A stretch of 34,645 nucleotides of DNA from Chthonomonadales bacterium (GTDB lineage Bacteria > Armatimonadota > Chthonomonadetes > Chthonomonadales > CAJBBX01). Made by a program: the position numbers and the translations under genes. The notes beneath the pieces were generated by a model. That model worked only from the letters and a program-made list of their open reading frames with translations. It was not told the origin of the DNA and made no database searches. Shown in pieces: positions 1,622 to 20,796 of the stretch. The DNA is taken from NCBI GenBank assembly GCA_020849275.1, contig JADLGO010000039.1, forward strand, positions 1 through 34,645, in the 5' to 3' direction. Each line of letters begins with the position of its first letter. The stretch's first letter is position 1.

Positions 1622-1645
1622 CCGCCCCGTCGGATGGAGACCGCC

Positions 1646-2797
1646 ATGACCTCGCGCGAGCGCCTGCTGGCCGCCCTGGACCACCGTGAGCCCGACCGCG
1701 TGCCGCTGGACATCGGCAGCACGGCGGTCACCGGCATCCACCGAGACGCGCGAACGTCCCTGCGCGCGCACCTCGGCCTGCCGGCCCGCGAGGCCGTTAC
1801 CTGGCATCGAATGCAGCAGCTCGCCCGCGTGGACGACGACCTGCACTCCGCGCTCGGCACCGACGTGCGCGGAGTGCGTTGCGCCGCCGGCGCCGGGTGG
1901 GACGCGCAGGAGACCGAGGACGACGGCTACCGTCTTTACACAGACGAGTTCGGCATCGTCCGGCGCATGCCGCGAGCCGGCGGCCAGTACTACGACCTGT
2001 GCGGCTCACCACTCGCCGGAGCGTCCGGGCCGGCCGACGTCGCTGCCTGCGCGTGGCCGCGGCCAGACGGCCACGAGCGGTTCGCCGGAATGCGCGATCA
2101 GTGCCTGGCGGCGCGCGAGGCAGGGTTCCCGGTGGTGCTGGGCAGCGTCTGCTCCGGAATGATGGAGATGGGCGAAGCGATGCTCGGCTTCGACCGCTAC
2201 TTCACCGAGCTTGCGGCGAACCGCCCGCTCATCGAGGCGCTGGCCGACCGGGTCCTCGAGCTCAAGACGCGCTACTGGCGCGCCGCGATGACGCAGGTAG
2301 GCGACCTGGTGGACGTGGTGCAGGAGGGCGATGACTACGGCGGCCAGCGCGGGCTGCTCATCTCGCCGGCCCTCTGGCGCGCCGTATTCCGGCCTCGCCT
2401 CGCGGCGCTGTTCGCGGCACTGCGCAAGGCCGCGCCGCGTGTGCGCGTGCTGTTCCACTCATGCGGGGCGATCCGGCCCATTCTGCCCGACCTGATCGAG
2501 GTCGGCGTGGACGCGATCAACCCGGTGCAGCTCTCCGCGCCCGGCATGGAGCCCTCGGAACTCAAGAAGGACTTCGGCGCAAACCTCACCTTCTGGGGCG
2601 GCGGGGTGGACACACAGCGCGTGCTTCCGCGCGCCTCGCCCCGGCAGGTGCGCGAGGCGGCGCTGCGGAGCATTGAGGCATTCGCGCCGGGCGGCGGGTT
2701 TGTCTTCGCGGCCGTGCACAACATCCAGCCAGACGTGCCGCCGGCAAATGTCCTTGCGATGTGCTCGGCGATCCGCGAAACCGGTACTGGCGGCTAG
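1646..2797 (+). CDS. Uroporphyrinogen decarboxylase-family protein (MtaA/CmuA-like), copy 1
   Basis: A 383-residue cytoplasmic protein of the UroD/corrinoid-methyltransferase superfamily. It starts with the characteristic T-S-R-E-R-L-L-A-A-L-x-x-x-x-P-D-R-V-P and carries H271-S-C273-G, the H-x-C part of the zinc site of methylcobamide:CoM methyltransferases. Near the end is H-N-I-Q-P-D-V-P-P-A-N, common in the non-haem branch. Heme-pathway UroD is unlikely because no heme genes are nearby and the H-x-C motif is not a UroD feature. A likely role is methyl transfer or breakdown of a small substrate, but no corrinoid protein is seen in the window. The ATG at 1646 follows a GGAGA site; an in-frame ATG at 1634 is less well placed. 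Confidence 0.8.
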   Translation: MTSRERLLAALDHREPDRVPLDIGSTAVTGIHRDARTSLRAHLGLPAREAVTWHRMQQLARVDDDLHSALGTDVRGVRCAAGAGWDAQETEDDGYRLYTDEFGIVRRMPRAGGQYYDLCGSPLAGASGPADVAACAWPRPDGHERFAGMRDQCLAAREAGFPVVLGSVCSGMMEMGEAMLGFDRYFTELAANRPLIEALADRVLELKTRYWRAAMTQVGDLVDVVQEGDDYGGQRGLLISPALWRAVFRPRLAALFAALRKAAPRVRVLFHSCGAIRPILPDLIEVGVDAINPVQLSAPGMEPSELKKDFGANLTFWGGGVDTQRVLPRASPRQVREAALRSIEAFAPGGGFVFAAVHNIQPDVPPANVLAMCSAIRETGTGG

Positions 2798-12957: not shown

Positions 12958-14496
12958 CTACGCGCGATAGCCGACCAGCGTGGGGCGCTCCGTGGGACCA
13001 AACCCGACGTTCGTGCGGCGAGTCATGGTCAGCCGATCCCCGGCGAACGCGAACCTCGTGGTCTCGACGAACGGGGTCTCAAGGAAACAGACGGTCAGGG
13101 TGTAGGTATCGCCACCAGACCATGCCCCGCGCGCGGCAACGCGCGTGGGCGGCTCGCCCGGGGCGTCCGTCGCCGTGGCTTTGGCCCAGGAGCCGTGGGG
13201 TGCCTCGACGGCGTGGTCTCCTCGTGCGTCGCGCAGAGTCACCCGACTGCGTCCGTCCTCGAAAGTGAGCGTCACCCCCTCGATCTTCTCCTCGTTAGCG
13301 TCGAAGCGGTAGGTCGCTCCCGACACGTCGGCCGCCGTAGCCGAGGTGCGCGCTCCATCGGGCGCCGCCACGCTCAGCGAGGCCAGGCGCGCCTTGAGCG
13401 CCGACGCGCCGCGGGGATCCGACACCCTGCCCGGCCGCATCGCGGGCAGCAGGTGGTCCCATGTCGCGTTGAGCACCGCCTGCATGTCGGCCACCCCGCT
13501 GGTGATCGCGAGCACGGCGTCCTGCGCTGGCATCACCACGCAGTACTGGCCAAAGGCCCCGTCCCCGCGGTACCCGCCGTGGCGGCAGCGCCAGAACTGG
13601 TAGCCGTAGCCCTGGGTCCAGTCGCTCGCGTCGCCGGTCCCGTTCGCGATGTGCTTCGCCGTCGCCTCCTCGATCCACGACTCCGGCACGAGCTGCTTGC
13701 CCTCCCAGCGCCCGCGCTGGAGGTAGAGTTGCCCGAAGCGCGCGATGGCCTCCGTCGTGATGCTGAGGCCCCACCCTCCGGTGTTCACGCCACGCGGGCA
13801 GCTCTCCCAGGTCGCGCCGGCGACTCCCAGCGGCGCGAAGAGGCGCGGGGTGAGGTACGCCAGAACGGACTGGCCGGTCACCCTCTGCACGATGGCCGAG
13901 AGCATGTAGGTGGCCGCGCTGTTGTAGACGAACAGGCTACCCGGCTCGCGCTCGACGGGCAGCGCAAGGAAGCTCCGCGCCCAGTCGCCATCGGGCGCGC
14001 TCACCGTGGAGCCCGTCGCGTCCTTCTCGTGACCGGTGGACATGCTCAGCAGGTGTCGCACTCGCATCGCCCGGAGGTGCTCGCTCCGCTCGGCCGGAGC
14101 CTCGGCGGGGAAGAAGGCCAGCACGGGGTCGTCGACGGTGAGGCGCCCCTCCGCCACGGCGAGCCCGACGGCGGTCGACGTAAAGCTCTTGCTCAGCGAG
14201 AAGAGCATGTGCGGGTACGCGGGCGCGTAGGGGTCCCACCAACCCTCGGCCGCGACCTGGCCGTGGCGTAGTAGCATGAAGCCGTGCAGGCCGCCGACGG
14301 AGCGCTCCACGGCCTCGATGAACGCCAGAACGGCCGTCGGCTCGATGCCGGCGGCCTCGGCGCCCACGCGCCGGAGCCGGCGCGTGGGCGCTGGCTCCGC
14401 TCCGGCGGCGGTCGGCCCCACCGCGCAGGCGGCGGCGCCGAAGGCAAGGCCCTTGATGACGGTTCGACGGGTGGTGCCTGGCTTCTCGGGTGGCAA
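12958..14496 (-). CDS. Tat-exported serine hydrolase of the class C beta-lactamase / DD-peptidase family
   Basis: 512 residues. A twin-arginine signal (T9-R10-R11-T-V-I-K-G with a hydrophobic core) precedes a penicillin-binding-protein-like domain. The nucleophile motif is S100-L-S-K103; Tyr191 in V-Y-N-S is the general base; H-G-G-Y-R-G-D-G stands where K-T-G normally lies. The last 130 or so residues form a separate beta-rich domain. Such proteins are esterases, D-amino-acid peptidases or amidases more often than true beta-lactamases, and the long insert argues against an antibiotic-resistance role. Translation starts at TTG 14496, placed by AAGGGA upstream and by the Tat peptide. It follows the glycosidase-like gene by 118 bp on the same strand. 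Confidence 0.85.
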   Translation of the reverse strand: MPPEKPGTTRRTVIKGLAFGAAACAVGPTAAGAEPAPTRRLRRVGAEAAGIEPTAVLAFIEAVERSVGGLHGFMLLRHGQVAAEGWWDPYAPAYPHMLFSLSKSFTSTAVGLAVAEGRLTVDDPVLAFFPAEAPAERSEHLRAMRVRHLLSMSTGHEKDATGSTVSAPDGDWARSFLALPVEREPGSLFVYNSAATYMLSAIVQRVTGQSVLAYLTPRLFAPLGVAGATWESCPRGVNTGGWGLSITTEAIARFGQLYLQRGRWEGKQLVPESWIEEATAKHIANGTGDASDWTQGYGYQFWRCRHGGYRGDGAFGQYCVVMPAQDAVLAITSGVADMQAVLNATWDHLLPAMRPGRVSDPRGASALKARLASLSVAAPDGARTSATAADVSGATYRFDANEEKIEGVTLTFEDGRSRVTLRDARGDHAVEAPHGSWAKATATDAPGEPPTRVAARGAWSGGDTYTLTVCFLETPFVETTRFAFAGDRLTMTRRTNVGFGPTERPTLVGYRA

Positions 14497-14614
14497 GATC
14501 GGGTCCCTTTCTGGCTCTGGCAGCGGATGCGCGGCGCGTGGCGCCGGCTTCCATCTTGTTCGAGGCCGCGGCGCGCCGCACCTGCGGAGGCCATGTCGCG
14601 GCGCGGCGCGCCGC

Positions 14615-17600
14615 CTACCGCCAGCTCAGGCGCGTCGTGCTGGACAGCCAGGGTTGCGGTGCGTGGAACGGAGGACGGAAGGTGAGGACGATCTCCGCTT
14701 CGCCGGGCTTGGAAGGAGCGACGCCGCGCAGCTCAATCACGGCCGTCTCGCCGTAGGCCACCGGCCGGCCCGTAAGCTCGCGACGCGCCGGCAGGCCGAG
14801 CCGCGCCGCGTCGCCGGCGAGCTCCAGTCGGTAACCGGGCTCCGGCATCCACGGGCAGACCCCGTCGTTGCGCATCCGCACGGTCAGCGTGAACGGCTCC
14901 CCGGCTTCGAGCGCGACGGCTGAGGCTTCCAGTGTCCCTCCGAACTGCGGCGCCTCGCCAGGCCGTGGCTCATGCATTCCGTACGCGCCGAGAGACCATT
15001 CGCCGTAGGGCCGCATGAACCCACCCGCACGCGTCCGCGCCATCATGCTCCCTGGAACCTGAGCCGCCACGCCGTCCAGCACCTCGGCGTCAACATACAT
15101 GGCGCGCTGAAGGGCGAGCAAGCGCGCGCGCTCGGCGGGCGACAGGCCACCTCCCGAGCGGCGAGCGGCCTCGACAACCTCGCGCATCAGGTCGAAGCGT
15201 TCCAGGAACCGCAGATGCCGCTCGAAGAACCTCCCGTAGAGGCCCACGTGCGCGAACCACGCGGACTCCCGCCCGTCCGCGACCGCACGCAAGCGTGACA
15301 GCGTCGCGCGGAAGCGCCGCAGCCACTCCCGCGACTCGATGCTGGTGGCGCGCCGCTGCTCCCGCGCAAGGCGAGTCCATTCGTTGGGGTAAAGAGGCAC
15401 CGCGAACAGGTCCCACAGGCGTTCGTAGGCGGCGCTCATGCGCACGAACGGCAACGCGCCCGCCTCGCCGAACGTTCGGCGGCCCCACTCGTACCGGGCC
15501 GTGTTCGGTGTGGCCGTCGGCTCGCGGCCGAACCTGCCGATGGCCTCCCACGGAAGCTCGGTGCCGCGGTACGCGCCGCCGATCCAGAAGCTCCCGCGGT
15601 CCGCGAGTAGGCGGCGCATGCGGGCGGTCGGAGCCAGCCGGAAGCTTGCCATCAGGTTGTCGAGCCAGGTATCGCCCATTGGAGCCACGCTCTCGAACGC
15701 CCGCGTGAGCACGCCGAGCCCCGCGCCGTGGCCCACGATCCGCAGGTCGCCCGGCAGAAGTGGCTCCAGACTCGGCTCGTAGTGGTCGAAGTACGGGTAC
15801 ACGGCAACGTCGCCGCCAAACCCCTGCTTGCGGAGCGCGTCGTAGAGGATCAGGTACTGCTCCCAGACGGGGCTGTGCGTGCGCGAGGCTTTCAGGTAGG
15901 TCTGGCAGCGATCGCAATCACAGATGCCGCCGTTGTCGTCGCGGATCATCACGACGCCATCGATCGGGTAGGTCTCCAGCGATTCTCGCAGGAACGCGCG
16001 CAGGTACTGGCCGTAGAGCGGATGGGTGAAGCAGGGGTAGCGCTCACTCCTGGGCGACATGGCCTCGGGATGCGCCCGTGCGTACGTGGTTGGGACGGCG
16101 CCGATGGGCAGCCACAGCCATACGCGCACGCCGCGCTCGTGCAGGAAGCGCAGCAGCTTGAGGCCGTGCTCGCGGTGGCTGGCGAAGTCGGCGAAGCGCG
16201 CACCGCTCACCTCGTCATAGGCGTCCGGCGCCTCGGAGCGGAGCTCGGGCATGTAGCGGTAGGAGACGGGCATCTTCCAGTTGCCCCACATGCCCAGGTC
16301 GCCCATCACGTTCATGCCACTGGCGACCAGGCGATCGAGCACGCTCTCCCACTCTGCGTCGTCTCCGTACGGAAAGTCGACCTCGAAGTCGCCACCCCCG
16401 AACCCCCCGGCCCGCAGGTCCACCACCGGATTGGCGGCGATCAACGGGACGCGAACCGGCGCGCCGGGTCTCGTCAGCGCGATGCGCTCCGCCAGCCGAT
16501 GAGCCGCCTGCATCAGGCCGAACGGAGTCGCGGCGAGGACGGCCACGCCCCCGTCGGGCGCCGGCCGCACGGCGAAGCCATCGCCGGAGATCCCCACGGC
16601 CTGGCCGTCGCCGACGAGTTCCATCGCGATCGCTTGCCCGCCGCCCGGGGCCCCTGCCGACACGGATACGCCGGCCTGCTCCAGCGACTTCTCGAGCGTT
16701 CGCATGGCCGTGCGCGCCGGTGGTGGTCCTGTAAGGCGGGCGGCGCGGGCCAGCCACGGTACCGCGAATGGAGCCGGATCGACGATCAGCCCCTCATCGG
16801 CCAGGGTGGCAAGCTCGCGCGCGTTCGCGGCATCGCCGGGCGCCGCCGCCAGGAGATTGCGGGACCAGCGCCGCCCGTTCGCGAACTCCTCGCCCAGGAC
16901 GACCAGCGCCGCGCCGTTCTTCCGCCGGATCTCCGCCGGAAAGTGGACGGCGGCGGCGTACTCCTTGAACCCGTAGTACGGCGCGCGGTTGGCGAGGCGC
17001 GAGAGCGGCTCCGCCTCGCCGGCCAGGTCCAGCCGAAAATGGGCGGCCCGGCCGATCCACGGCGATGCGCCAGTCCAGGGGCGCTCGTCGGCGACCACCT
17101 CGACGCGCCCCGCTCGGTGGACGCGGTAGGTGAGCGCGAGAGCCGGAGCGTGGCGATGCTCGAGGACGAAGTGAAGCTCCGTCATGGCCGGTGTGGAGGA
17201 GGAGGCCACGAGGCGCGCGCGCGGTGCGCCAAGATCGCGCGTGCGCTTGATCTCGTACGTGGGCCGAGCGAGGCCCGCCGCGAACTCGCTCGGGCGCACG
17301 CCGCGCGGCTCAGCGCGCCAGAGCACGAGGGCCATCGGCTCCCGGAGCATCTCGACGCCGTGCGCGCGCAGGGCGCGCAGCATCGCGCTCTCCGCGTCGA
17401 AGGTCACGACGAGGCCGGGGTAGGAGACGATCAGCGCGCCGTCGCGCCGCCGGAGCGCCGAGCCCGCGGGCGGCGAGCCCGGCACAAGGTCCAGGCGCAG
17501 CCAGCGTCCCGGCGTCACCGCGCAGGAAAAGACGAGCAGGTCCTCGGCCCGAGGGTCGCGCACCGGCGCCACGAGCGCGGCGGCGGCATGCCGGCGGCCC

Positions 17601-17818
17601 TCGCGAATGGCAAACGGCACGTCGTGCCCGGCTGCGATGAGCCGCAGCCGGCCCCAATCCACCAGGCCAGGGGTGACCAGGCTGCCGACGGGAACCTCGA
17701 CCACCGTCGGGCCGCTCCAGCGAGTCGGGTTGAACAACCGCACCGAGGCGATCGGCGCGGCGCCGCGCGCGGGCGCGGCCGCGACGAGCGTTCCGGCCAA
17801 CAGAGTCAGAACGGTCAA
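14615..17818 (-). CDS. Large secreted glycosidase-like protein (alpha-glucuronidase / hexosaminidase-type barrel)
   Basis: 1067 residues. Residues 1-20 are a signal peptide (hydrophobic core ending A-P-A-R-G-A). A beta-sandwich of about 350 residues follows. At about 372-460 is a region like the N-terminal domain of GH20/GH67 enzymes (V-G-D-G-Q-A-V-G-I-S-G-D-G-F-A-V). From about 465 comes a TIM-barrel-like part with R-D627-D-N-G-G-I-C633-D-C-D-R-C638, resembling the D-G-x-x-C-x-C-x-x-C segment of DUF4838/GH67-like proteins; the final 100 residues look Ig-like. It probably removes uronic acid or hexosamine residues from a glycan outside the cytoplasm, but the family assignment is tentative. 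TTG 17818 is the preferred start: GGAGG lies upstream and the signal begins there. It follows the dehydrogenase gene by 43 bp. Confidence 0.7.
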   Translation of the reverse strand: MTVLTLLAGTLVAAAPARGAAPIASVRLFNPTRWSGPTVVEVPVGSLVTPGLVDWGRLRLIAAGHDVPFAIREGRRHAAAALVAPVRDPRAEDLLVFSCAVTPGRWLRLDLVPGSPPAGSALRRRDGALIVSYPGLVVTFDAESAMLRALRAHGVEMLREPMALVLWRAEPRGVRPSEFAAGLARPTYEIKRTRDLGAPRARLVASSSTPAMTELHFVLEHRHAPALALTYRVHRAGRVEVVADERPWTGASPWIGRAAHFRLDLAGEAEPLSRLANRAPYYGFKEYAAAVHFPAEIRRKNGAALVVLGEEFANGRRWSRNLLAAAPGDAANARELATLADEGLIVDPAPFAVPWLARAARLTGPPPARTAMRTLEKSLEQAGVSVSAGAPGGGQAIAMELVGDGQAVGISGDGFAVRPAPDGGVAVLAATPFGLMQAAHRLAERIALTRPGAPVRVPLIAANPVVDLRAGGFGGGDFEVDFPYGDDAEWESVLDRLVASGMNVMGDLGMWGNWKMPVSYRYMPELRSEAPDAYDEVSGARFADFASHREHGLKLLRFLHERGVRVWLWLPIGAVPTTYARAHPEAMSPRSERYPCFTHPLYGQYLRAFLRESLETYPIDGVVMIRDDNGGICDCDRCQTYLKASRTHSPVWEQYLILYDALRKQGFGGDVAVYPYFDHYEPSLEPLLPGDLRIVGHGAGLGVLTRAFESVAPMGDTWLDNLMASFRLAPTARMRRLLADRGSFWIGGAYRGTELPWEAIGRFGREPTATPNTARYEWGRRTFGEAGALPFVRMSAAYERLWDLFAVPLYPNEWTRLAREQRRATSIESREWLRRFRATLSRLRAVADGRESAWFAHVGLYGRFFERHLRFLERFDLMREVVEAARRSGGGLSPAERARLLALQRAMYVDAEVLDGVAAQVPGSMMARTRAGGFMRPYGEWSLGAYGMHEPRPGEAPQFGGTLEASAVALEAGEPFTLTVRMRNDGVCPWMPEPGYRLELAGDAARLGLPARRELTGRPVAYGETAVIELRGVAPSKPGEAEIVLTFRPPFHAPQPWLSSTTRLSWR

Positions 17819-17861
17819 CAGCAACTCCCTCCAGGGCGTACCCGACAGGTCGCGCGCAGCC

Positions 17862-18863
17862 TCATGTGTTCCAGTCGAGCGCCACGGCGAGCGAGCGGTC
17901 CGGACACTCGGCCAGGCGCGCGTATGCCTCGGGCGCACGCTCGGCCGGGAACCGGTCCGTGATCAGCCGCGAATGCGTGACCAACCCCGCCGCGGCGAGC
18001 GCCAGGTAGAGGCGGGCGTCGCTGTGGCGCGTCCATCGGTTGTGCTCATTGGGCACGCTGGCGTGCGTGAAGTTGTGCGCCCCGATGATCACGGTACCCC
18101 GCGCGTTGACCAGGTCGTGGAAGTCCATCGTCGTCGGCCCGCGCGGGCTGCTCAGGATCACCTGACGGCCGAGCCTTCGCAGCCAGGCGATCTGCCGCGG
18201 GATAGCCGCCGGGTTGCCGGTCACCTCGAACACGACATCGGCCATAAGCCCATCTGTCGCCCGCGAGATCGCCTCGGCGGCGGTGTCCGGGTGCGCCACA
18301 GCCGACGCGCCACCAGCAAGGGCGGCTTGGCATCGCGAGGGTTCGACGTCGACGCCGATGACCGGCCAGGCGCCCGCAAACCGCGCGAACGTTACCGTAA
18401 GCTGCCCGAGCAGCCCCAGGCCGCACACCACGGCACTCTCGCCGAGCGTGATCGCGGCGCGGCGCACTCCGTGCATCACGATCTCGGCGATGGTGGCGAA
18501 CACGGCCTCCTCGTCCGGCAGGCCGCCCGGCACCGGCCGCAGCGCGTCCTCGGCCATGGTGTAGATCGAGGCGTGCGGTCCCTCGGACGCCACGCGGTCG
18601 CCCGGCTTCAGCCGCCGCGCGTCGAGACCGACCTGCTCCACGACGCCGACGTTGCAGTAGCCGGCCTGCCAAGGAAACCGCCCGACGGCCTCCCAATTGC
18701 TTCCCGGCGCATGGCCCCCGCGCAGGATGGTCAACTCGGTGCCCGTGCTGATCAGCGTCGTCGTCGTCCGCACCAGGACCTCGCCCGCACCCGGCGCGGG
18801 GACCTCGCGATCCTCCACCTCCACGCGCATCGGTGCCGTGAACACGACCTGCCGGGCTTTCAT
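17862..18863 (-). CDS. Zinc-type alcohol dehydrogenase (MDR) family protein
   Basis: 333 residues of a medium-chain dehydrogenase/reductase. The N-terminal catalytic domain contains I-S-T-G-T-E and P-G-D-R-V; the NAD(P)-binding domain has G-L-G-L-L-G-Q. The segment S-T-G-T-E replaces the C-G-x-D catalytic-zinc segment of classic enzymes. This subgroup includes bi-domain sugar oxidoreductases and sorbitol- or theronine-type dehydrogenases. It likely oxidises a sugar or polyol in the cytoplasm; the substrate is unknown. The ATG at 18863 lies behind GGAGGGAG, and its first four bases are shared with the stop of the upstream UroD-like gene (ATGA), strong evidence for translational coupling. Confidence 0.82.
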   Translation of the reverse strand: MKARQVVFTAPMRVEVEDREVPAPGAGEVLVRTTTTLISTGTELTILRGGHAPGSNWEAVGRFPWQAGYCNVGVVEQVGLDARRLKPGDRVASEGPHASIYTMAEDALRPVPGGLPDEEAVFATIAEIVMHGVRRAAITLGESAVVCGLGLLGQLTVTFARFAGAWPVIGVDVEPSRCQAALAGGASAVAHPDTAAEAISRATDGLMADVVFEVTGNPAAIPRQIAWLRRLGRQVILSSPRGPTTMDFHDLVNARGTVIIGAHNFTHASVPNEHNRWTRHSDARLYLALAAAGLVTHSRLITDRFPAERAPEAYARLAECPDRSLAVALDWNT

Positions 18864-19858
18864 CGTGCTCCCTCCTGCCCCGCGGCGGGCTCGCAGGCCG
18901 AGGCTGACGCCGCGAGCCGATTCGCCTCCTCGACCGCCTCGACGAAGGCGACCACGTTGGCCGGCGGCGTGTCGGGCTCCAGCGTGTGCGCGGGCGCCAC
19001 GATCAACCCGGTGCCTGGGCCGAACAGCCCGGTCAGCCGAAGCACGGCTGCGCGCACCTCCCGCGGCGTACCGCGCGCCATCGTGCTCTGCGCCCCGATG
19101 CCGCCCCAGAACGCCAGTTGGTGCGAATGCGCGCGCACCAGTGCCGGAACATCGTTGCACTCGGGCTGGATCGACTCGAGCACATCGACTCCGCACGCGA
19201 TCAGGTGCGGCACGAGCGGCTCGATGTGCCCGCAACTGTGGTAGGCGATGGTGACGTCCGGCCGCACCTCGCGCGCCGCCGCGACGATGCGCTCCAGCGG
19301 CGGCCGGAAGAAGGCCTGCCACGTCTCCTCGCGCACAAGCAGCGCGCGCTGCGAGCCCATGTCGTCGCCGATGAAGACAATGTCGACGCCAGCGCGCGCA
19401 TAGCCGGCCGCGATGCGAGCCTTGTTCGCCGAGATACGATCCAGGAAGCCGCGCGTCTCGGCAGGCTCGGTCATCACATCGACGAGCAGGTCCTCCAAGC
19501 CGCGCTCCTCGTGCGCCTGCTCGAATGTGCCGCACTCGTAGCCGGAGACCACGGCCAGCCCGGCGGCGCGCCACGCGTCGGCCTGCCGCGCCACGCGCTC
19601 GAAGTCGAACAGCGCGTCGAACCCGCCCCGCGACAACTCCGCATCGAACGCGAAGCGCCCGGGCCTGCCGCAGTAGGTCCAGCGCAGATCGAGCCCGAAC
19701 CAGGCATCCAGGTCGTCCGATCCGGTCTCACGACGGAAGTGCCGCGCCAGCGCCGGGCTGGGCCGCAGATGGCGCGGAAAGGGAGCGGGCCCGCGCCGGG
19801 CGACCGCGCGAAGCACGCGGTCACGGCCTGATCTCGACGGCTCGACGACGGTGGTCAT
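18860..19858 (-). CDS. Uroporphyrinogen decarboxylase-family protein (MtaA/CmuA-like), copy 2
   Basis: 332 residues, the same superfamily as the protein at 1646-2797 but clearly divergent from it. It carries H207-S-C209-G-H-I-E, the H-x-C zinc half-site, and at the end A-P-A-H-T-L-E-P-D-T-P-P-A-N, parallel to copy 1. F-I-G-D-D-M-G-S-Q in the middle is another hallmark of the non-haem branch. It is likely a cytoplasmic methyltransferase or lyase acting on a catabolite; heme synthesis is unlikely. The start at 19858 has GGGGAGG upstream; an in-frame ATG at 19882 has no better site. It heads an operon with the dehydrogenase (4-nt overlap) and probably the glycosidase-like gene. A PEP-CTERM gene lies divergently upstream. 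Confidence 0.8.
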   Translation of the reverse strand: MTTVVEPSRSGRDRVLRAVARRGPAPFPRHLRPSPALARHFRRETGSDDLDAWFGLDLRWTYCGRPGRFAFDAELSRGGFDALFDFERVARQADAWRAAGLAVVSGYECGTFEQAHEERGLEDLLVDVMTEPAETRGFLDRISANKARIAAGYARAGVDIVFIGDDMGSQRALLVREETWQAFFRPPLERIVAAAREVRPDVTIAYHSCGHIEPLVPHLIACGVDVLESIQPECNDVPALVRAHSHQLAFWGGIGAQSTMARGTPREVRAAVLRLTGLFGPGTGLIVAPAHTLEPDTPPANVVAFVEAVEEANRLAASASACEPAAGQEGAR

Positions 19859-20034: not shown

Positions 20035-20112
20035 CAGGAGCGTACTGACAGGATCGCCGGGGGGGCCCAAGCCAGGCGACAACATCCGACCCGTACGACA
20101 AGGAGAGACGTG

Positions 20113-20796
20113 ATGACGGGACGCATCATGCGCCGAGGAGCGCATCTCCTCGTGCTCGCTGCCGCTATCATCCTGGGCGCCTGCGGGCCGTCCGGCGCCC
20201 AGAACTGGTTCGCGAGCGCCAACGGCAATACGGTGGACGCCTACAGCGCGCTGATTCCGGGGTTCGCAGTCACCGACATGTTCGGCACGACCCTGGGCAC
20301 GGTCGAGGCCGGCAACACGATCTTCGTGGACGGGCTGCCGGAGTTCACGACGCACTACGTCGAGTTCCACACGGCGCAACTGGTCGACATCTACACGGTG
20401 AACCTCTACGCCACCGGCGATGCGGGTAGCAACTATCCCGACTATCGCGACTTCCTGACCTTCAACCTCTACGCTGGCCAGACGCCCGGCTCGCTCACGC
20501 AGTACATCGGCTACTCGCCGGGCCATCCCGAGGTCCCGGAGACGCTGCCGCTGCAGCACACCTTCGGGATCGGGGCGGGCTCGCCGATCACGGCGCAGTA
20601 CTTCCGCGCCGAGTTCCTACAGTACCAGGCGGGAGGGCCCGGCAACGGCCTGGGCGGGCCGCGCATCCTGGAGCTGGAGGGCTACGGCACCATCAGCGCG
20701 CAGCAGCCGGTGCCCGAGCCGGGGGCGCTCGCTTTCGCGGGTGTGCTCACGTTCGGCGGACTGACGCTCGCGCTCCGTGGGCGGCGTACCCGCTGA
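20113..20796 (+). CDS. PEP-CTERM sorting-domain surface protein 2 (with a lipobox-like signal)
   Basis: 227 residues. The signal peptide has a basic start (R-I-M-R-R) and a hydrophobic core (L-V-L-A-A-A-I-I-L-G-A-C24). L-G-A-C resembles a lipobox, so Cys24 might be lipidated; cleavage at S-G-A-Q about six residues later is the alternative. The middle is a beta-rich domain with many aromatic residues and V-E-F-H-T-A-Q-L-V-D-I-Y, reminiscent of discoidin-like folds. The C-terminus has V-P-E-P-G from about residue 200, a hydrophobic helix and R-G-R-R-T-R: a PEP-CTERM exosortase signal. The ATG at 20113 has AAGGAGAG upstream; a GTG directly before it is in frame. It is driven by the sigma-54 site at 20019. 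Confidence 0.85.
   Translation: MTGRIMRRGAHLLVLAAAIILGACGPSGAQNWFASANGNTVDAYSALIPGFAVTDMFGTTLGTVEAGNTIFVDGLPEFTTHYVEFHTAQLVDIYTVNLYATGDAGSNYPDYRDFLTFNLYAGQTPGSLTQYIGYSPGHPEVPETLPLQHTFGIGAGSPITAQYFRAEFLQYQAGGPGNGLGGPRILELEGYGTISAQQPVPEPGALAFAGVLTFGGLTLALRGRRTR

What the first reader, a model, noticed from the sequence alone, without database searches (positions are those of the whole stretch)
14615..19858. Tightly coupled UroD - dehydrogenase - giant glycosidase operon
The UroD-like stop and the MDR dehydrogenase start share ATGA (4-nt overlap), and the glycosidase-like gene starts 43 bp later. Translational coupling of a UroD-like enzyme with a sugar-type dehydrogenase and a secreted glycosidase points to one catabolic pathway with an unknown UroD step.
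Basis: partly seen in the sequence, partly recalled or inferred. Interest (0 to 1): 0.55.

Follow-up and report, generated by a model that had tools for sequence, protein, structure and literature searches.

The report
Sugar-breakdown operon with odd UroD partner
Three closely packed bacterial genes look like a small kit for breaking down a sugar polymer: a glycosidase of an unnamed family and a matching dehydrogenase form its core, while the protein that resembles a heme-making enzyme is an optional extra that more likely handles methyl groups than makes heme.

Summary
In detail: on the minus strand a UroD-family gene (19858-18860) overlaps an MDR dehydrogenase gene (18863-17862) by ATGA, and a large glycosidase-like gene (TTG 17818-14615) starts 43 nt later. 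Such spacing is ordinary here (14 of 166 same-strand pairs overlap by 4 nt). The genome is Armatimonadota. GLYC matches no Pfam glycosidase family, but its model folds like GH138/GH20/GH84/GH115; homologues are patchy in five phyla. In a Chitinophagaceae SusC/SusD locus the closest MDR found (58%) sits two genes after a GLYC homologue, so GLYC+MDR looks like a real catabolic module. The UroD is not HemE: it is MtaA-like with an H-x-C...H motif, one of 35 UroD-family matches in the genome. None of 14 fetched GLYC loci holds a UroD, and two GLYC genomes have only one, HemE-grade. Its 72-75% orthologues in three relatives sit in clusters with GH20 and GxGYxYP genes instead. UroD genes do recur just upstream of such MDRs (5 of 60 loci). 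So the one-pathway idea is partly supported: core GLYC+MDR, accessory UroD. A sugar O-demethylase role is possible but not shown.

The parts
18860..19858 (-). UroD-superfamily protein, 332 aa, MtaA/CmuA-like, not HemE; possible metal motif H207-x-C209...H291
   Evidence: PF01208 82.8 bits; mtaA_cmuA 51.2 bits, hemE 19.2 bits, both far below cut-off; HxC aligned with MtaA 4ay7; motif tables; low-confidence model resembles UroD and MtaA
18860..18863 (-). ATGA overlap of UroD stop and MDR start
   Evidence: sequence
17862..18863 (-). MDR dehydrogenase, 333 aa, BchC-like subgroup without the usual zinc ligands (GHE replaced by GYC)
   Evidence: PF00107 62.3 bits, PF08240 25.6 bits; BchC model 58.9 of 291 bits; alignment
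14615..17818 (-). GLYC: 1067-aa glycosidase-like protein: hydrophobic N-terminus, beta-sandwich about 24-325, alpha/beta domain about 327-450, TIM barrel about 455-780, helical domain, C-terminal Ig-like domain
   Evidence: no Pfam glycosidase family; alignment of 14; AlphaFold2 pLDDT 82, pTM 0.85; Foldseek and VIA-align
17816..17832 (-). GGAGGG ribosome-binding site (17832-17827) and TTG start (17818-17816) of GLYC
   Evidence: sequence
14568..14614 (-). 18-pair G+C-rich hairpin directly after the GLYC stop, possible end of the transcript; no U-run
   Evidence: z -3.7, 0 of 200 shuffles fold as well

Best explanation
This is a lineage-specific glycan-catabolism operon built from parts that travel separately. 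GLYC, exported, trims a sugar from a glycan with a GH20/GH84/GH115/GH138-type barrel (likely acidic pair D627-D628). The zinc-free MDR, inside the cell, oxidises or epimerises a released sugar with NAD(P) (inferred). The UroD-family protein is an accessory, most likely a metal-dependent enzyme of the methyltransferase type that removes or moves a methyl group on part of the substrates (inferred, weak). Shown here: gene layout, families, predicted GLYC fold, GLYC-MDR linkage in two phyla, UroD not HemE. Inferred: export, substrates, one transcript, every reaction.
For: GLYC fold: GH138 first by Foldseek (E 8.7e-14, though TM 0.36-0.44 and rmsd 12.6 over the whole model), GH20, GH115, GH84 next; GH20 Z up to 18.2, rmsd 5.5, 430 aligned. 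R626-D627-D628-N629-G630-G631 is invariant in the 14 aligned proteins; D628 falls on the E of the NE stretch of a beta-galactosidase (5e9a) in a weak profile match (E 0.011; that this E is its acid/base is recalled). GLYC-MDR: in L166 SusC, SusD, GLYC, PF07090, MDR, MFS, GFO/IDH/MocA lie on one strand; this MDR is the nearest found (58%, 410 bits against 290 for the next), clade with the window's at 100/100 in a tree of 36; it was the only match at E 1e-60 in 244 genomes of its family and at 1e-85 in 395 of its phylum, its own genome counted. In three relatives GLYC is followed by a GH106 gene, Pfam-confirmed in 3 of 3. UroD: 28 of 38 paralogues match the MtaA-type model PRK06252; the H-C-H motif is kept in the three 72-75% orthologues, which sit in clusters with GH20 and GxGYxYP genes, Pfam-confirmed in 3 of 3. 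In 60 MDR loci other than the window, 5 hold 6 UroD genes, all upstream, on the same strand, within 2.2 kb; one lies in a same-strand cluster GH123, GH29, UroD, UroD, CBM9, MDR.
Against: No UroD at 14 of 14 GLYC loci. Genomes G299 and G295 have GLYC and one PF01208 match each, HemE-grade. No MDR of this kind at 13 of 14 GLYC loci (L155 has a different, zinc-type ADH on the other strand), nor at E 1e-30 in the three nearest genomes that share GLYC and UroD. GLYC and MDR trees disagree. None of the 6 UroD genes found near other MDRs has the H-C-H motif. No corrinoid protein or activator gene was seen in the operon; the genome has 4 B12-binding_2 and 1 RACo match against 35 UroD matches (B12-binding PF02310 was not searched genome-wide). 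UroD neighbours are not enriched for secreted-type proteins.
Confidence: 0.5

Rival explanations
1. Only GLYC and MDR work together; the UroD gene is a hitch-hiker from a 35-match family that ended up upstream and serves another process.
For: Genomes G299 and G295 have GLYC but no UroD paralogue beyond one HemE-grade gene; the UroD orthologue has other partners in three relatives; many copies make chance meetings likely; UroD neighbours are not special genome-wide.
Against: All 6 UroD genes near MDR genes in 60 loci lie upstream on the same strand; the orthologues too are coupled to glycosidase genes.
Confidence: 0.3
2. All three genes are neighbours by accident and have no shared role.
For: No other genome seen has all three together.
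Against: GLYC-MDR linkage with a 58% MDR in another phylum; tight spacing with a ribosome-binding site before each gene.
Confidence: 0.12
3. A tetrapyrrole operon: UroD plus a BchC-like dehydrogenase acting on a porphyrin or chlorin.
For: UroD family name; the MDR gives 58.9 bits with the BchC model.
Against: hemE 19.2 of 303 bits, bchC 58.9 of 291 bits; the nearest MDR lies in a polysaccharide locus; no other tetrapyrrole family among the window genes scanned one by one (not every window gene was).
Confidence: 0.03

Closest known systems
GH138 / GH20 / GH84 / GH115 glycoside hydrolases (PDB 6hzf, 3s6t, 2cbj, 5by3)
   Same: Alpha/beta domain followed by TIM barrel in the same order
   Different: 8-15% identity in the rows listed, no Pfam GH20 match, D-D where GH20 has D-E (GH20 pair recalled), extra N-terminal sandwich and C-terminal Ig domain
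MtaA methylcobamide:CoM methyltransferase (4ay7) and the UroD-superfamily O-demethylases (MtvB, OdmB, VdmB, MtoB as named in PMC13222342)
   Same: UroD superfamily, H-x-C motif as in MtaA
   Different: Third Cys of MtaA replaced by His, curated cut-offs missed, no corrinoid protein seen beside it
Bacteroidota polysaccharide utilisation loci
   Same: GLYC and MDR homologues lie in one, L166
   Different: No SusC or SusD among the window genes scanned
Zinc ADH beside the 6-O-methyl-galactose demethylase of porphyran users (PMC10033563, abstract read)
   Same: A dehydrogenase with an auxiliary role in the use of a methyl sugar
   Different: Demethylation there is by a P450; the window MDR lacks the zinc ligands

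Membership tests
HemE uroporphyrinogen decarboxylase (TIGR01464) | equivalog cut-off 302.95 bits | tested here: not met
   19.2 bits
UroD superfamily (PF01208) | gathering score 23.9 bits | tested here: met
   82.8 bits, profile positions 159-345 of 346
MtaA/CmuA methyltransferases (TIGR01463) | subfamily cut-off 235.4 bits | tested here: not met
   51.2 bits
MtaA/CmuA methyltransferases (TIGR01463) | zinc ligands His, Cys, Cys (recalled) | tested here: not met
   His and Cys kept, third is His
Corrinoid-dependent demethylase system | corrinoid protein and activator encoded nearby | tested here: not met
   none among the window genes scanned; 4 B12-binding_2 and 1 RACo match on other contigs
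MDR alcohol dehydrogenases | PF00107 and PF08240 gathering scores | tested here: met
   62.3 and 25.6 bits
MDR alcohol dehydrogenases, zinc type | catalytic Cys, GHE motif and structural zinc loop (recalled) | tested here: not met
   ISTGTE and GYCN in their place, loop absent
BchC (TIGR01202) | equivalog cut-off 291.25 bits | tested here: not met
   58.9 bits
GH20 (PF00728) | Pfam match | tested here: not met
   no match at E 0.001
GH20/GH84/GH115/GH138 fold group | fold | tested here: met
   predicted model
GH138 | family membership by sequence and catalytic residues | tested here: inconclusive
   best Foldseek hit at 11% identity; no GH138 profile used
Polysaccharide utilisation locus (Sus type) | SusC/SusD pair beside the enzymes | tested here: not met
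   absent among the window genes scanned; present in L166

The most novel reading that the evidence does not exclude
UroD-superfamily proteins with an H-C-H metal site, members of a family expanded to 12-60 matches in 16 of 18 related or GLYC-bearing genomes searched, are O-demethylases or methyl-shuttling enzymes for methylated sugars: GLYC frees an O-methyl sugar, the UroD protein strips its methyl group onto a shared corrinoid or folate carrier, and the zinc-free MDR then oxidises the bared sugar.
Probability: 0.17. Interest if true: 0.75.

Novelty: new variant of a known kind. Interest (0 to 1): 0.42.

Why it matters
It points to an undescribed glycosidase-fold family with a linked dehydrogenase in two phyla, both ready to assay, and it offers a concrete test bed for why genomes of Armatimonadota, Planctomycetota and Hydrogenedentota carry so many UroD-family genes (12 to 60 matches in 16 of 18 genomes searched, one in the other two). 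If the sugar O-demethylase reading held, it would help explain that expansion and add a non-P450 route for methyl sugars.

Tried and rejected
HemE or tetrapyrrole reading: rejected on model scores and context. A general rule that UroD genes sit beside secreted enzymes: not found (11 of 32 against 36 of 127, p 0.52, a crude hydrophobicity rule). Pfam tallies of direct neighbours: pectate-lyase-like domains in 3 of 39; that family is not among the 25 of 84 families shown for 60 control genes, so this is weak (60 of 88 control genes were given, mostly the short ones left out; all 39 neighbours were given). The total of UroD genes in the 60 MDR loci (6 in 596 kb) is about what genome density predicts (35 in 4.8 Mb); only their one-sided position is striking. 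Two of those loci (L148, L194) had caught my eye earlier through, but both belong to the full set of MDR matches; MDRs at contig edges may hide further partners. UroD structure: a two-sequence alignment gave pLDDT 56, too weak to read the metal site. Planctomycetota search for the close MDR: 0 of 392, without a positive control. Promoter and terminator scan empty. In the rows listed by paper searches (most lists were cut at 6-20 rows) I saw no report of a UroD-MDR-glycosidase operon or of a UroD-family sugar demethylase; only listings were seen except PMC13222342 (passages) and PMC10033563 (abstract and outline). Rows dropped: L165 (GLYC broken in two frames) from alignment A1; fragment L167 from the GLYC tree; the MDR tree holds 36 of the 62 MDRs (L106 fell under 140 bits; L148, L171-L194 were fetched for and not added).

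Full report
What is there. The three genes lie on the - strand as described: UroD 19858-18860, MDR 18863-17862 with an ATGA overlap, GLYC from TTG 17818 (or 17824) to 14615, 43 nt after the MDR stop. A purine-rich ribosome-binding site stands before each start, so coupling is possible but not required. Codon use supports all three in a model trained without them. A hairpin of 18 pairs follows the GLYC stop. In 166 same-strand neighbour pairs called in stretches of this genome 14 have a 4-nt overlap, so the overlap alone is weak evidence.

Where it comes from. The window is contig 39 of a 4.8-Mb genome, 99.9% complete. The genome gives 35 PF01208 matches, 34 over the cut-off; my own profile finds 38 UroD-family genes in the fetched stretches.

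GLYC. Pfam gives only a weak Ig-like domain, NCBIfam nothing. Among 291 genomes of the phylum 6 match, the window's own included, one of them weakly. A scan of GTDB contigs gave 14 loci in five phyla as the records name them: Armatimonadota, Hydrogenedentota, Planctomycetota, Acidobacteriota, Bacteroidota, 40-56% identical. R626-D627-D628-N629-G630-G631 is invariant in the 14 aligned proteins (no column before 523 can be, since fragment L167 starts there). AlphaFold2 on this alignment gave pLDDT 82, pTM 0.85. Foldseek ranks GH138 first, with GH20, GH115 and GH84 next; VIA-align gives GH20 Z up to 18.2. I read it as a glycosidase of a family not held in Pfam; whether CAZy has a number for it was not testable.

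GLYC and MDR. In L166 (Chitinophagaceae) SusC, SusD, GLYC, a PF07090 protein, MDR, an MFS carrier and a GFO/IDH/MocA enzyme lie in line on one strand. This MDR is 58% identical to the window's, against 48% or less for the 58 other matches in 101 genomes. The two form a clade at 100/100 in a tree of 36 of the 62 MDRs at hand. Apart from L166's own genome no match was found in 244 genomes of its family at E 1e-60 or 395 of its phylum at 1e-85 (at most 8 and 5 candidates per genome were scored). The GLYC tree instead puts the window with Armatimonadota. Either the pair is old and often broken up, or it came together twice; both favour a shared task. Against this, 13 of 14 GLYC loci lack such an MDR, some on short contigs (L156, L157, L161, L167) or at a contig edge (L158). 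In the three nearest relatives GLYC is followed by a GH106 gene (3 of 3). The MDR belongs to a BchC-like group without zinc ligands.

UroD. It scores 19 bits with HemE and 50-56 with three MtaA-type models, all below cut-off. Aligned with MtaA 4ay7 its His-x-Cys falls on MtaA's, and a His stands where MtaA has Cys. In 49 UroD-family proteins (38 of this genome, 11 of relatives) 15 have H-C-H and 2 H-C-C, as far as the alignment of so diverse a set can be trusted. Of the 38, one matches the HemE model, weakly. The best PF01208 score here is 214 bits, while 12 of 18 other genomes have a gene above 400 bits. Corrinoid machinery exists elsewhere: a UroD gene beside a RACo gene (L021), and three UroD genes with a homocysteine methyltransferase and a B12-binding end (L022).

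UroD and partners. The 72-75% orthologues in three relatives lie on other contigs than GLYC, in same-strand clusters with GH20 and GxGYxYP genes, Pfam-confirmed in 3 of 3. In L144 and L143 the UroD overlaps the GH20 gene by ATGA; in L142 one gene lies between. None of 14 GLYC loci holds a UroD. Genomes G299 and G295 have GLYC but one PF01208 match each, of 461 and 427 bits, HemE-grade. So UroD is not needed for GLYC or the GLYC-MDR pair there. Yet in 60 loci around 61 MDR matches (the 58 matches other than the window's, plus 3) 5 hold 6 UroD genes, all upstream on the same strand within 2.2 kb. If side and strand were random this would be about (1/4)^5 = 0.001 for five loci (my arithmetic). 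One is a same-strand cluster with GH123, GH29, two UroD, CBM9, MDR and a sugar-isomerase-like gene (L148); another holds an enolase-superfamily gene (L194). None of these six UroD proteins has the window's H-C-H motif.

Mechanism. Shown: layout, families, predicted fold, the GLYC-MDR link. Inferred: export of GLYC from a hydrophobic N-terminus; glycoside cleavage; sugar oxidation; methyl transfer by UroD. UroD-superfamily O-demethylases and dehalogenases are known (PMC13222342, passages), and a dehydrogenase gene is needed for good growth of Zobellia on 6-O-methyl-galactose (PMC10033563, abstract). These make a methyl-sugar role thinkable, not shown: no corrinoid gene was seen in the operon, and the genome has few by the two families searched.

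Verdict. Observation confirmed; interpretation partly supported. The finding is a new variant of a known kind: a glycan operon with a GLYC-MDR core and an accessory UroD.

Noticed in passing
L039:5777-6703 (+) (G000:C15): A UroD-family gene (PF01208 62 bits) lies between two genes of the proton-pumping NADH dehydrogenase/antiporter family and overlaps the first by 4 nt; an odd place for such a gene.
   Followed up: partly
window 1634-2797 (+): A second UroD-family gene (H-C-H motif) directly after a pectate-lyase-like gene (326-1621); two other UroD genes of this genome also adjoin such genes (L023, L027).
   Followed up: partly
G000, whole genome: No HemE-grade UroD found: best PF01208 match 214 bits, although the genome is 99.9% complete and three relatives (G006, G009, G011) have one at 447-450 bits.
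   Followed up: no
window 20110-20796 (+): Divergent neighbour ends in a VPEPG...RGRR tail like a PEP-CTERM sorting signal (motif recalled); no Pfam match.
   Followed up: no
window 12958-14496 (-): Serine-hydrolase-type protein (PF00144) with 296 bits to the 3-succinylated cholic acid synthase model (cut-off 800), downstream of the operon.
   Followed up: no
L022:6327-10931 (-): UroD, homocysteine methyltransferase, UroD, UroD and a B12-binding end at a contig edge: looks like a corrinoid methyltransferase set.
   Followed up: partly
L154:7514-9595 (-): A glycyl-radical enzyme gene (PF02901, PF01228) is divergent from GLYC in a relative.
   Followed up: no
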